From the NCBI GenBank assembly GCA_021204885.1, contig JAJPYP010000181.1:1-5314 (forward strand): a stretch of DNA of 5,314 nt. Direction: 5' to 3'. Of the stretch, positions 1,600-5,314 are shown in pieces. A program made the translations under genes and the position numbers. Origin of the DNA: Prevotellaceae bacterium. GTDB lineage: Bacteria > Bacteroidota > Bacteroidia > Bacteroidales > Bacteroidaceae. Every line of letters begins with the position of its first letter. Position 1 is the stretch's first letter. A model generated the notes under the pieces. It had not been told where the DNA came from and did not search any database. It saw only the letters and a list, made by a program, of their open reading frames with translations.

Positions 1600-2439
1600 T
1601 TATAACCGGGATTTAACGATTTTCTCGGTTTCCTCCCATAGCTGTCCCATCTGTGCATGCTCCGTGTACTTTTGGGACAGCTTCTTTTCGTGGCAGCTGG
1701 CGTTCAGCGTGCCCGTGCGCCCTCCCGCCTCTTCATCCAAGAGCAGGCTGACGGCTGTGGCCGCTCCCTTACGCGGCGTGCGTATGAAGGGACGGAAGAA
1801 GATGTCCGTCAACGGGTCAAACCATAGATGCATGGTGATGATGTCGGTCGATACCACGCCCGGGTCGGCGGCGTTCACCACAATGCCCCGCTCTTTCACG
1901 CGGCGGGCCAAGTCGATGGTGAAAAGCATGAGTGCCAACTTCGTGTTGCTGTAGATGGGGATGCGCCAGAAGCCGCCGCGCCTGCCCCGCGTGAAGAAGT
2001 CGGGGAAGTCGAGCGTGCCTATGGCGTAGGTACAGGATACCATGTTCACGATGCGGCTTCCCTTGCCCATCAAGGGCAGCAGCTTGCGCGTCAACAGGTA
2101 GGGACCCACGTAATTCACGCTCACCGTCTGCTCCAATCCGTCCTCGGTGATGTGCAGCCCCGTCTCCAACGTGCCGGCGTTGTTCATCAAGAGCGTGAGC
2201 GGCTCGCCGCGCCCAAGCATGTCATTCGCGAACGCTTCCACCGATGCGAGCGAGGCCAAGTTAATCTCCTTCACCTCTATATTCTCGTTGCCCGTATCAC
2301 GCGCCAGCATCTGCCGCTTGGCTTCGGCTGCCGCGGCATTACGGCAAGCCATCACTACCTTGTATCCCGCCGTGGCCACGGCGCGGGTTATCTCGGTGCC
2401 CATGCCCCCGTCGGCACCCGTTATAATCGCTGATTTCAT
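1600..2439 (-). CDS. Short-chain dehydrogenase/reductase, candidate 3-beta-hydroxysteroid dehydrogenase
   Basis: This is a classical SDR oxidoreductase of 279 residues. Seen in the sequence: the dinucleotide-binding motif TGADGGMG (7-14); R33 just after the second beta strand, which often favours NADP(H); NNAG (86-89); N109; catalytic S135; the Y163-x3-K167 pair in YSNTK; and DPGVVSTD (193-200). The catalytic set N-S-Y-K is therefore complete. The overall form resembles the retinol-dehydrogenase-like branch of SDRs, and no signal peptide or membrane segment is evident. It is the last gene of the minus-strand cluster, starting 24 bases after the stop of the flavin oxidoreductase gene. Its ATG at 2439 is preceded by an A/T-rich stretch with AATAAGG. 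SDR substrates cannot be read from motifs. The 3-beta-HSDH suggestion rests on its neighbours, a 5-alpha-reductase and an OYE-type reductase, as in reported isoallo-bile-acid clusters. The alternative is a generic carbonyl reductase. Confidence 0.93.
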   Translation of the reverse strand: MKSAIITGADGGMGTEITRAVATAGYKVVMACRNAAAAEAKRQMLARDTGNENIEVKEINLASLASVEAFANDMLGRGEPLTLLMNNAGTLETGLHITEDGLEQTVSVNYVGPYLLTRKLLPLMGKGSRIVNMVSCTYAIGTLDFPDFFTRGRRGGFWRIPIYSNTKLALMLFTIDLARRVKERGIVVNAADPGVVSTDIITMHLWFDPLTDIFFRPFIRTPRKGAATAVSLLLDEEAGGRTGTLNASCHEKKLSQKYTEHAQMGQLWEETEKIVKSRL

Positions 2440-2463
2440 ATACCTTATTATATATATCTATTC

Positions 2464-3693
2464 TTAAGCCTCCTTGCTTTCGATGCGCTCTATCTCGCGC
2501 TTCAAGCACGGCGGCAACTCCTCTTGCAGGTGTTGGTGGCAAGCCATCTCGATGGAGTACATCCGCGCGATGCAATAGTTGCTGTGCCTGCAATTGCAAC
2601 GCGCGTTCTCCTCGGCCCGCATGCGGTTCACGAAGCCCGGTTCGTTGAGCAACGCGCGTGCCATCTGCACCGCTTGGAAACCTTTGCCTAATACCTCGTC
2701 TATCTTCTGGCGCGATACCAATCCGCCCACATAGATAAGCGGCATCTTCAGCGCGGCACGGAACTTCAAGGCATCCTCCAAGAAGTAGGCCTCCTTGAAA
2801 GGCACGGTAGGAATCATCATCTTGCCCACCATGCGCACGCCGTATTTCAGCCACCAGCACTTCATGTAGTAGGTCATGCTGCGGATGGGCATCTCCCCCC
2901 GCATCACATACATGGGTGCCTTGCTCACGAAGCCGCCGCTCAGCACGAGCGCGTGCGCCCCCGATTGCTCCAACCGCTTGGCCACTTGCAGCGCCTCGTC
3001 TATCTCCATGCCCCCTTTGAAACCGTCGCGCAGGTTCGTCTTCACTATCACGGCCATGTCGCTGCCGGCGGCACGCATCACCTCCTCCATCACCATGTCC
3101 ATGAAGCGCATGCGGTTCTGGAGCGACCCGCCGAAGTCGTCTTTGCGGTGGTTCGTGTAGGGCGAGAGGAACTGGCTTATCAAGTAACCGTGACCGGCAT
3201 GAATCTCCACCGCGTCGAAGCCCGCCTCGCGTGCCAAGTTCACCGAGCGGCCGTAAGCACGCGCCAACTCGGGCAGTTCGTCGGCCCGCAAGCCGCGCAC
3301 GAAGGTGGGCGAATAGAGGTTGAAGCCGCCGCTCGCGCCCACAGGCGTGCAACCGCATATACTCTTGTGCGACATGTTGCCGCAATGCCCCAACTGGATG
3401 CCGGCGGCCGCGCCTTCGGCATGCACGGCATCGGTCAAGCGGCGCAATCCCGGCACAATCTCGGGCCGCATCCACAGCTGCCGGTCAAAGGAGAGTCCGC
3501 TTCGCGTCACGGCCGCGTAGGCCACGGTGGTCATGCCCACGCCCCCTGCCGCGACCGAACGGTGGTAGTCGAGCAACATCTGTGACGGTACATTGCCCGG
3601 ACACATGCTCTCGAACGCGGCCGAGCGGATGGTGCGGTTACGCAGCGTCAACGGGCCGAAGGTGACGGGCGTGAATAACGTTGAATCTTTCAT
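2464..3693 (-). CDS. Old yellow enzyme family NADH:flavin oxidoreductase, candidate steroid 5-beta-reductase / delta-4 dehydrogenase
   Basis: This 409-residue FMN-binding TIM-barrel enzyme belongs to the family of 2,4-dienoyl-CoA reductase and the bile-acid enzymes BaiCD/BaiH. Seen: LFTPVTFGPLTLRNR (6-20), the usual OYE opening; IQLGH (99-103), the FMN/substrate region; HAGHGYLISQFLSPYTNHR (165-183) followed by DDFGGSLQNRMRF, the strongest family signature; and YVGGL (321-325) with the MARALL segment (344-349) for phosphate binding. The C-terminal tail has cysteines 366, 368, 374 and 385, where iron-sulfur members of the family carry a 4Fe-4S cluster. The spacing is unusual and a serine (371) sits where the middle cysteine would be expected. 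The protein stops there and lacks the FAD/NAD domain of the ~640-residue BaiCD or dienoyl-CoA reductase, so electrons must come from elsewhere or directly from NAD(P)H. The start is fixed by the upstream stop 17 bases away. Steroid substrate is inferred from context; another enone or dienoyl substrate is possible. Confidence 0.9.
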   Translation of the reverse strand: MKDSTLFTPVTFGPLTLRNRTIRSAAFESMCPGNVPSQMLLDYHRSVAAGGVGMTTVAYAAVTRSGLSFDRQLWMRPEIVPGLRRLTDAVHAEGAAAGIQLGHCGNMSHKSICGCTPVGASGGFNLYSPTFVRGLRADELPELARAYGRSVNLAREAGFDAVEIHAGHGYLISQFLSPYTNHRKDDFGGSLQNRMRFMDMVMEEVMRAAGSDMAVIVKTNLRDGFKGGMEIDEALQVAKRLEQSGAHALVLSGGFVSKAPMYVMRGEMPIRSMTYYMKCWWLKYGVRMVGKMMIPTVPFKEAYFLEDALKFRAALKMPLIYVGGLVSRQKIDEVLGKGFQAVQMARALLNEPGFVNRMRAEENARCNCRHSNYCIARMYSIEMACHQHLQEELPPCLKREIERIESKEA

Positions 3694-3710
3694 ATCGTGT
3701 CTCTATATGA

Positions 3711-4475
3711 TTAGTAAATAAAAGGTATCACCCGCTTGCGCTTGCCCACCGCCTCGTCGCCGAACTCCTTGCGGTAACGGCGGTGTATGGCATCGGCACG
3801 CGGCACCAAGTTGGCGAAGGTCCACCACACGAATACCCAAGCGGCCGGTGAGAGCGTGAGCACGGCAAAGCCCGTCCACTCCACGAGTTCACCGAAGTAG
3901 TTGGCCGAGGTGATGTATCTATAAAGCCCTTTGGCAGGCAGGTAGTGCGCCGTGTCGCCGGGCTTGCGCAGGTGGCGTATCACATGGTCGGAATGGAGGT
4001 TGATGCCCATGCCCACGAAGAAGAGCAGCAGCCCGGGGAGGGCGTTCGCTTGCAGCAGATAGGCCGCGCCCATGTCGTAAGCGCCCGCACGCGGGAAGAA
4101 GAAAAGCCCGCCGGCCTGCATCATGCCGTTCAGCACGTTGAACACCACGCCCATGGCCACGATGGCCACCGGCATGCGGCTCTTGCCCTTCATCAAAAGC
4201 GGGAAAACAAACGAGCGTTGCAGGTAGTGCAGCTGGAAGAGCAGGAAGAAGAGTCACACGGGCAGGGTAAAGCCCGTGCCGCTGATGGCCCACAGCACCC
4301 ACATCACCACGAAGACGGGAGCCTCCATCAACACCCAAGCCACCTTGTTGTCGAGCGAGATGCCCCACGAGGGCGTGCGGAACATGCCGTAGCCCGCCTT
4401 CACGAAATAGAGCGAGATGAACACGACGAGCGCCAACGCGCTCATCACCCACAAAAAGAGCCGAAAACTTTCCAT
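3711..4475 (-). pseudogene. Steroid 5-alpha-reductase family membrane protein (3-oxo-5-alpha-steroid 4-dehydrogenase), interrupted by an in-frame TGA
   Basis: One reading frame runs from ATG at 4475 to TAA at 3711 (254 codons plus stop), broken only by TGA at codon 74 (4256-4254). The two halves are in the same frame, so this is a nonsense change, not a frameshift. Length and pattern match the SRD5A family, which reduces the delta-4 bond of 3-oxo-steroids with NADPH in the membrane. Before the stop: hydrophobic segments, and E51 in WVLMEAP, matching E57 of human SRD5A2. After it: LHYLQR with Y84, matching Y91; the family block GINLHSDHVIRHLRKPGDT; YITSANYFGELVEW; and the RKRVIPFIY end. Several further membrane segments are visible. 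A 73-residue fragment would separate the two catalytic residues and lack the cofactor region. No strong internal start is seen; the first ATG past the stop is at 4193. It is the first gene of the cluster behind a good promoter. Recent inactivation, sequencing error or readthrough remain possible. Confidence 0.9.
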
Positions 4476-4491: not shown

Positions 4492-4555
4492 AACGCTTGT
4501 AGCAGCTGTTTACACTGTGGCAAATATAAAGATTAACTTCAACATGGCAAGCGTT
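4492..4555. repeat. 8-bp inverted repeat flanking the cluster promoter (possible operator pair)
   Basis: AACGCTTG at 4492-4499 is matched perfectly by CAAGCGTT at 4548-4555. The second copy covers the -33 element and the first lies in the predicted leader, so the pair brackets the promoter with 56 bases between copy starts, roughly five helical turns. That arrangement would suit a repressor binding two sites, but an 8-bp match can arise by chance and no regulator gene is in the window. Confidence 0.35.
4521..4551 (-). promoter_or_regulatory. Bacteroidetes-type promoter for the steroid-enzyme cluster
   Basis: On the minus strand TATATTTG (4528-4521) fits the Bacteroidetes -7 consensus TAnnTTTG exactly. 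CTTG (4551-4548) stands at the -33 position, with a 19-base spacer (4529-4547), which is the usual spacing. Transcription would begin near 4515, giving a leader of about 40 bases before the ATG at 4475. Only 17 and 24 bases separate the following genes, so this promoter probably drives all three. The start site is inferred, not observed. Confidence 0.72.
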
Positions 4556-4686
4556 CCCTGCCCATTAATCTTGCAAAATGAGGCGCATGCCCGTCAACCT
4601 CCCTTTTTTGAGATGGTACCGACCGCATACCCCGGTTCCGTTCATCCCAATCGGCGGTTATCATGACTGCATTCCATGCGATGAAT

Positions 4687-4800
4687 CGAAGCGCTTCCGT
4701 AGACCTTATCGAAGCGCTTCCGTAGATCCTGTCGAAGCGCTTCCGTAGATCCTGTCGAAGCGCTTGAGCAGACCTGCCGAAGCGCTTCGACAGACTATAT
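4687..4800. repeat. Five-unit ~23-bp tandem repeat with palindromic AAGCGCTT core
   Basis: Units begin with CGAAGCGCTT at 4687, 4710, 4733, 4756 and 4778, giving a period of 23, 23, 23 and 22 bases. Units 2 and 3 are identical over all 23 bases. Unit 1 differs at three positions near its end. Units 4 and 5 keep the core but diverge after it. The core AAGCGCTT is self-complementary. Unit 5 extends this to a 12-bp perfect palindrome (CGAAGCGCTTCG) and ends in CGACAG, the inverse of the CTGTCG junction between units 2 and 3 and between 3 and 4. There are no spacers between units. The function is unknown; it may be a protein-binding array or a genomic repeat family. Confidence 0.9.
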
Positions 4801-4856: not shown

Positions 4857-4898
4857 TATAAAACAAATGGGAGCATGCCGTAAACGACACGCTCCCAT
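4857..4898 (-). terminator. Likely intrinsic terminator, minus strand, downstream of fucO
   Basis: An 8-bp perfect stem (ATGGGAGC at 4867-4874 with GCTCCCAT at 4891-4898) encloses a 16-base loop that can form a small inner CGT/ACG pairing. Read on the minus strand it is followed by TTGTTTTATATC, a U-rich tail. On the plus strand no T tract follows. It lies about 150 bases past the fucO stop, so it would end that transcript before the repeat array and the cluster promoter. Confidence 0.6.
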
Positions 4899-5051: not shown

Positions 5052-5314
5052 TTAGAGCGCTTTCTTGTAGAGACCCAATACGATCTCCTCGTTGACCTCG
5101 CGCGGATTGCCCGGCGTGCACACGTCGGCCATGGCTGCCTTGGCCAAGCGGGGCAGGTCTTCCTCCTTGATGCCAAGGTCGGTCAAGTGCTGCGGGATGC
5201 CCACTTTGACCGATAACGCCTTCACGGCATCGCAAGCTGCCTTGGCGGCCTCTTCATCGGTCATGCCGTCTTTATAGACCTTCATGGCCTTGGCTATCTC
5301 CACATACTTGGGCA
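5052..5314 (-). CDS. fucO: Lactaldehyde reductase (iron-dependent alcohol dehydrogenase family), C-terminal fragment
   Basis: The last 86 complete codons and TAA stop are visible; the gene enters from the right edge. FucO reduces L-lactaldehyde to L-1,2-propanediol with NADH in anaerobic fucose or rhamnose breakdown. The visible part reads PKYVEIAKAM at the edge, then an acidic helix, VGIPQHL, LGIKEEDLP and DVCTPGNPRE near the end. This is closely similar to the C-terminus of E. coli FucO (VGIPPHL, DVCTGGNPRE). The iron ligands and nucleotide-binding domain are upstream, outside the window. A GTG at 5303 is not a start; coding continues to the edge. The general family is certain. The lactaldehyde specificity is likely, but other group III alcohol dehydrogenases share this end. 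It is transcribed toward the cluster, separated by the repeats and a likely terminator. Confidence 0.88.
   Translation of the reverse strand, partial: PKYVEIAKAMKVYKDGMTDEEAAKAACDAVKALSVKVGIPQHLTDLGIKEEDLPRLAKAAMADVCTPGNPREVNEEIVLGLYKKAL

What the first reader, a model, noticed from the sequence alone, without database searches (positions are those of the whole stretch)
1600..4475. Compact 5AR - 5BR - HSDH gene set: candidate allo/isoallo bile-acid (or steroid) pathway
Seen: three minus-strand genes spaced 17 and 24 bases apart, encoding a steroid 5-alpha-reductase family protein, an OYE-type reductase related to BaiCD/BaiH, and an SDR with a complete catalytic set, behind one promoter. Known, from recall of work on isoallolithocholic acid in gut Bacteroidales such as Odoribacteraceae and Parabacteroides: 5BR forms a delta-4-3-oxo intermediate, 5AR reduces it to the allo (5-alpha) form, and a 3-beta-HSDH yields the isoallo product. 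Inferred: this window holds that pathway, next to the housekeeping genes pgi and fucO.
Basis: partly seen in the sequence, partly recalled or inferred. Interest (0 to 1): 0.85.

Follow-up and report, generated by a model that had tools for sequence, protein, structure and literature searches.

The report
Known bile-acid gene trio, one interrupted
This is the gut-bacterial gene set already known to flip bile acids into the flat "allo" form, found in many Bacteroides relatives, but here the key 5-alpha-reductase gene carries a stop signal in its middle, so as sequenced it could not finish the job.

Summary
The three genes are real, on the stated strand and spacing (17 and 24 bases): a steroid 5-alpha-reductase (5AR) family region, an OYE-type flavoenzyme and a short-chain dehydrogenase. 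The trio is not new. The same order stands in 74 of the 80 best-matching loci, and a review passage describes this set from Sato et al. 2021, with 5AR disruption in Parabacteroides merdae abolishing alloLCA derivatives (PMC10382948). The stop lies upstream of the PF02544 match and between the residues aligned with Glu57 and Tyr91 of human SRD5A2. The closest relative (94%) has Cys there. None of the 32 strong matches in 251 genomes, nor the 94 strong match rows in 149 genomes, has an internal stop. As sequenced, this copy should not make allo products. A recent nonsense change and an assembly error cannot be separated without reads. Substrate rests on homology and gene association; OYE and SDR are below the NCBIfam cut-offs in the rows shown. 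Adjacency to pgi was seen in 1 of 80 loci.

The parts
3711..4475 (-). 5-alpha-reductase family gene (5AR), interrupted; start ATG at 4475, TAA at 3711-3713
   Evidence: PF02544 126.5 bits over residues 100-254, TGA read as Trp; for its 94% relative P0001, PDB 7c83 (E 1.4e-51) and 7bw1, human SRD5A2 (E 3.9e-35)
4254..4256 (-). in-frame TGA stop, codon 74 of the 5AR
   Evidence: the closest relative has Cys here; 120 homologs have Y57 F55 C3 S2 A1 V1 G1
2464..3693 (-). OYE-type flavin oxidoreductase, candidate bile-acid/steroid 5-beta-reductase (5BR)
   Evidence: PF00724; NF041087 BaiCD 171 bits, below cut-off 825; H165, H168 and C366, C368, C374, C385 invariant in 10 of 10
1600..2439 (-). short-chain dehydrogenase, candidate 3-beta-HSDH
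   Evidence: PF00106; N109, S135, Y163, K167 invariant in 8 of 8; none of the 25 NCBIfam rows shown, of 198, reaches its cut-off
4521..4528 (-). possible -7 element TATATTTG upstream of 5AR
   Evidence: not more frequent than chance in the window; consensus recalled
4867..4898 (-). terminator-like hairpin between fucO and the cluster (14 pairs, loop 4)
   Evidence: 4 such sites found against 4.7 expected, so suggestive only

Best explanation
The trio is an ordinary member of the Bacteroidota bile-acid A/B-ring isomerisation cluster. [quoted passage not shown] The membrane 5AR reduces delta-4 to the 5-alpha (allo) form. The SDR reduces the 3-oxo group to 3-beta-OH, giving isoallo products. In the sequenced copy the 5AR is cut by a TGA at codon 74, so this copy should stop at the delta-4 or 5-beta/3-beta products. 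Shown here: families, gene order, conservation, the stop. Inferred from published work on homologs: the reactions and substrates. Undetermined: whether the stop is a recent real mutation (my estimate about 0.65) or an assembly error.
For: Same-strand 5AR-OYE-SDR with gaps under 500 bases in 74 of 80 loci. Of 149 genomes in the genus-level group of G001: 5AR in 90, OYE in 85, SDR in 90, all three in 83. [quoted passage not shown] merdae prevented alloLCA derivatives (PMC10382948). Reaction order: passages of PMC10672800 and PMC9645264; PMC11271093 names the same enzymes. Stop. The residues aligned with SRD5A2 E57 and Y91 are window E51 and Y84, on either side of the stop (alignment of P0001; residue numbers by my count, catalytic roles recalled). 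No internal stop in 32 of 32 strong matches (9 weak dropped) or in 94 strong match rows from 90 genomes (3 weak rows dropped). The two sets share some genomes, and the G001 row in each does not reach codon 74.
Against: Substrate is not shown: OYE matches no specific NCBIfam model above cut-off, nor does the SDR in the 25 of 198 rows shown; the only PDB match of the SDR at E 1e-20 or better is 3rd5, deposited without a functional name. Apart from the stop the 5AR looks sound: of 104 columns conserved in 98% or more of 120 homologs, 103 match, which fits a sequencing error as well as a recent mutation. Signs of decay are mixed: dN/dS against L001 is 0.195 for the 5AR part, above 18 of 19 comparison pairs, but the OYE's 0.059 is also above 18 of 19. 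In a three-way comparison 7 changes are window-only, 8 L001-only and 1 P0001-only.
Confidence: 0.8

Rival explanations
1. The TGA is a sequencing or assembly error and the pathway is complete in the organism.
For: One base separates either Cys codon from TGA, and the closest relative has Cys there (its codon was not seen). The rest of the frame is conserved. No strong 5AR match in the searched genomes has an internal stop.
Against: pgi, OYE and SDR of the window show no frame damage; point errors are rare in consensus assemblies (general knowledge). No reads were available.
Confidence: 0.35
2. The cluster's natural substrates are other 3-oxo-delta-4 steroids (hormones, plant or host sterols), with bile acids only a side activity.
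For: The 5AR is homologous to steroid 5-alpha-reductases of known structure (7c83, 7bw1). A review table lists Bacteroides and Parabacteroides strains under testosterone 5-alpha and 5-beta reduction (PMC12789469 passage).
Against: The published cluster work described in the reviews is on bile acids, with a 5AR disruption phenotype.
Confidence: 0.2
3. The TGA is translated (leaky read-through or recoding), giving a working or low-level 5AR.
For: Trp from UGA read-through would probably be tolerated at a position that is Tyr or Phe in 112 of 120 homologs.
Against: No Rfam match at gathering threshold in the window; no unusual folding downstream of the TGA (z 0.43); the position is not a conserved Cys, so selenocysteine is unlikely; the four complete genes of the window end in TAA.
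Confidence: 0.04

Closest known systems
Bacteroidota 5AR / 5BR / 3-beta-HSDH bile-acid cluster (Sato et al. 2021, as described in PMC10382948)
   Same: Same three families in one cluster; same phylum; order 5AR-OYE-SDR shared with P. vulgatus ATCC 8482 and 74 of 80 loci examined
   Different: 5AR interrupted by an in-frame TGA; located beside gpsA-pgi (seen only in L001 of 80 loci)
BaiCD (NF041087) and BaiH of clostridial 7-dehydroxylators
   Same: OYE-type flavoenzyme; BaiCD acts on 3-oxo-delta-4 bile acids (PMC9645264 passage)
   Different: 409 aa against a 642-position model; 171 bits against cut-off 825; only residues 5-262 match
BaiP/BaiJ 5-alpha-reductases of Firmicutes (PMC9645264)
   Same: Same net reaction, 3-oxo-delta-4 to 3-oxo-allo
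   Different: The abstract states that they differ from the membrane-associated Bacteroidetes 5ARs
SRD5A2 and a bacterial 5AR of known structure (7bw1, 7c83)
   Same: Near whole-length sequence homology of the intact relative P0001; aligned Glu and Tyr conserved
   Different: Window copy has a stop between the two residues

Membership tests
Steroid 5-alpha-reductase family (PF02544) | Pfam model above gathering score | tested here: met
   126.5 bits against 22.6, with the TGA read as Trp
Steroid 5-alpha-reductase family (PF02544) | Single intact reading frame with both active-site Glu and Tyr | tested here: not met
   TGA at codon 74, between E51 and Y84
Bacteroidota 5AR/5BR/3-beta-HSDH cluster | 5AR clustered with an SDR (predicted 3-beta-HSDH) and a BaiCD/BaiH-like flavin oxidoreductase | tested here: met
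   description from PMC10382948
Bacteroidota 5AR/5BR/3-beta-HSDH cluster | Orthology to the characterised P. merdae / Odoribacteraceae proteins | not tested
   No named sequences of them in hand; source papers not held
Bacteroidota 5AR/5BR/3-beta-HSDH cluster | Conversion of 3-oxoLCA or 3-oxo-delta-4-LCA to isoalloLCA | not testable with these tools
   Needs an LC-MS assay
BaiCD (NF041087) | Score above curated cut-off over the full-length model | tested here: not met
   171.3 bits against 825; residues 5-262 only
OYE / NADH:flavin oxidoreductase (PF00724) | Pfam model and substrate-binding His pair | tested here: met
   179.9 bits; H165 and H168 invariant in 10 of 10; role of the His pair recalled
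4Fe-4S OYE subgroup (FadH/TMADH-like) | Four Cys in the C-terminal part binding a cluster | tested here: inconclusive
   C366, C368, C374, C385 invariant in 10 of 10, but the spacing differs from the FadH spacing as recalled; predicted model unreliable there (residues 345-409 pLDDT under 50)
Classical SDR | Asn-Ser-Tyr-Lys catalytic set | tested here: met
   N109, S135, Y163, K167 in 8 of 8; roles recalled

The most novel reading that the evidence does not exclude
The stop is real and fixed in this lineage, so the lineage keeps 5BR and 3-beta-HSDH under selection while giving up the allo step, turning an isoallo-producing cluster into one that makes iso or delta-4 products and feeds 5AR-bearing neighbours.
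Probability: 0.1. Interest if true: 0.45.

Novelty: new member of a known kind. Interest (0 to 1): 0.22.

Why it matters
IsoalloLCA is reported to act on regulatory T cells (PMC11271093) and to inhibit gram-positive pathogens (PMC10382948), so predicting which gut bacteria make it matters. Gene presence alone would count this contig as a producer; the in-frame stop shows why intactness of the 5AR must be checked first.

Tried and rejected
Selenocysteine or other recoding of the TGA: judged unlikely, since the position is Tyr or Phe in 112 of 120 homologs, no Rfam family matched at gathering threshold and downstream folding was no better than shuffles. Repeated loss of 5AR in relatives: considered because L066 and G305 also looked split. 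L066's gap is a run of N. G305 is frameshifted in both 5AR and OYE, which looks like assembly quality. Decay of the window's 5AR beyond the stop: inconclusive (see the report). Structure of the OYE: predicted from 10 close sequences, mean pLDDT 57, too weak for a fold search, so none was run. Paper searches: searches found nothing, one listing not opened; a search for nonsense mutation with 5-alpha-reductase and Bacteroides gave one listing with no 'nonsense mutation' in it, which says little.

Full report
What is there. The window reads gpsA 3' end (1-150, +), pgi (251-1588, +), then on the minus strand an SDR (1600-2439), an OYE-type flavoenzyme (2464-3693), a 5-alpha-reductase family region (3711-4475) and the 3' end of a lactaldehyde-reductase-like gene (5052-5312).

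The missed stop. The 5AR region translates with an in-frame TGA at codon 74 (4254-4256). The PF02544 match starts at residue 100, downstream of the stop. In the alignment of the intact relative P0001 to human SRD5A2 (7bw1), the residues corresponding to E57 and Y91 fall at window residues 51 and 84, on opposite sides of the stop (numbering by my count, catalytic roles recalled). P0001, 94% identical, has Cys at this place. The 120 listed homologs have Y 57, F 55, C 3, S 2, A 1, V 1, G 1. Searching P0001 in 251 genomes of the family-level group of L001's genome gave 41 with a match. The 32 strong ones (E 1e-80 or better; 9 weak dropped) have no internal stop. In 149 genomes of the genus-level group 91 matched. 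The 94 strong match rows, from 90 genomes, have no internal stop (3 weak rows dropped, one of them the only row of G334). One genome, G305, is split by a frameshift, but its OYE is too. L001, the nearest genome (OYE 96%, PGI 99%), begins inside its 5AR, after this codon, so it cannot say whether the stop is shared.

Error or mutation. Of 104 columns conserved in at least 98% of the homologs, 103 agree in the window, so the frame is otherwise sound. Window against L001 over 151 5AR codons gives dN/dS 0.195, against OYE 0.059, SDR 0.066 and PGI 0.019. In 19 comparison pairs (sharing loci, so not independent) the same 5AR stretch ranges from 0.028 to 0.329, and 18 are at or below 0.102. The OYE of the window-L001 pair is likewise above 18 of the 19 pairs, so the rise is not confined to the 5AR. 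With P0001 as third sequence, residues 104-254 show 7 window-only, 8 L001-only and 1 P0001-only change. The window is thus no faster than L001 but faster than P0001, and two of its changes (143, 188) hit conserved columns. This is inconclusive. A recent nonsense change and an assembly error both remain open.

A known cluster. One search found 424 loci encoding a relative of the OYE and kept the best 80. In 74 of these 80, 5AR, OYE and SDR lie on one strand in this order with gaps under 500 bases (L001 and L066 with incomplete 5AR are among the 74). The six exceptions are L013 (locus starts 138 bases before the OYE, no 5AR seen), L063 (no SDR seen) and four Prevotella/Prevotellaceae loci with larger gaps (L056, L058, L062, L064). 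Among 149 genomes, 5AR occurs in 90, OYE in 85 (17 genomes with only weak matches dropped), SDR in 90 (E 1e-60 or better), and all three in 83. Six have 5AR and SDR without a close OYE, and 58 have none of the three at these thresholds. The set is thus common but patchy; in the wider family-level sample 210 of 251 genomes had no 5AR match. Pgi lies inside the fetched locus in only 1 of 80 (L001). In genomes with both genes on one contig they can be far apart, for example about 35 kb in G325 and 62 kb in G153. So the housekeeping neighbourhood looks peculiar to this lineage. No locus showed the fucO piece, but L001 ends before that side and flanks were at most 6 kb.

Literature. Sato et al. 2021 and the 2021 Cell Host Microbe paper, tried by recalled DOI, are not held. 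I saw passages, found by term search, of four reviews and one primary paper, none read whole. [quoted passage not shown] P. merdae, Odoribacter laneus and Bacteroides dorei strains converted 3-oxo-delta-4-LCA to isoalloLCA; and disruption of 5AR in P. merdae prevented alloLCA derivatives. PMC10672800, PMC11271093 and PMC9645264 name the same enzymes; searches give the order of steps. PMC12789469 lists such bacteria under testosterone reduction as well.

How it works. Shown here: three enzyme families in one conserved cluster, and the stop. From the cited passages: 5BR makes the delta-4-3-oxo intermediate, 5AR reduces it to the allo form, 3-beta-HSDH gives the isoallo product. Inferred: that the OYE and SDR of this window do the same. 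The OYE is far below the BaiCD cut-off (171 against 825 bits), so it is related to BaiCD but is not filed as one. The SDR has no model above cut-off among the 25 of 198 matches shown, and its 3-beta activity rests on the cluster. With the 5AR cut, the sequenced copy would be predicted to form delta-4 or 3-beta-hydroxy 5-beta products only.

Regulation. A TATATTTG element and a terminator-like hairpin fit a separate transcription unit, but neither scan exceeds chance.

Verdict. A real but known gene cluster; a new member with an interrupted 5AR. Low interest, with the stop as a caution for gene-presence predictions of isoalloLCA producers.

Noticed in passing
window 4686-4788: Tandem array of a 23-base unit, 4.5 copies, carrying the palindrome GAAGCGCTTC, between the fucO-like gene and the 5AR.
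   Followed up: partly
L058 7225-9453; L062 7234-9516 and 9566-11821: In two Prevotella loci, histidine kinase genes sit between OYE and SDR of the cluster; each has an AraC-type HTH match lying before the HisKA domain (HTH_18 above cut-off in one of the three proteins), an order that struck me as unusual.
   Followed up: partly
G283, G302, G331, G362, G383: Genomes with 5AR and SDR side by side on one contig (gaps of about 29 to 130 bases) but no close OYE, so the 5AR-SDR pair can stand without the candidate 5BR.
   Followed up: no
L056 3189-4415 and 5830-8241: An ORF without Pfam match lies between 5AR and OYE, and a C10 peptidase gene between OYE and SDR, in a Prevotellaceae locus.
   Followed up: partly
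L001 455-534 and 1760-1888: The nearest relative has longer intergenic gaps in the trio (78 and 127 bases by match ends) than the window (17 and 24).
   Followed up: no
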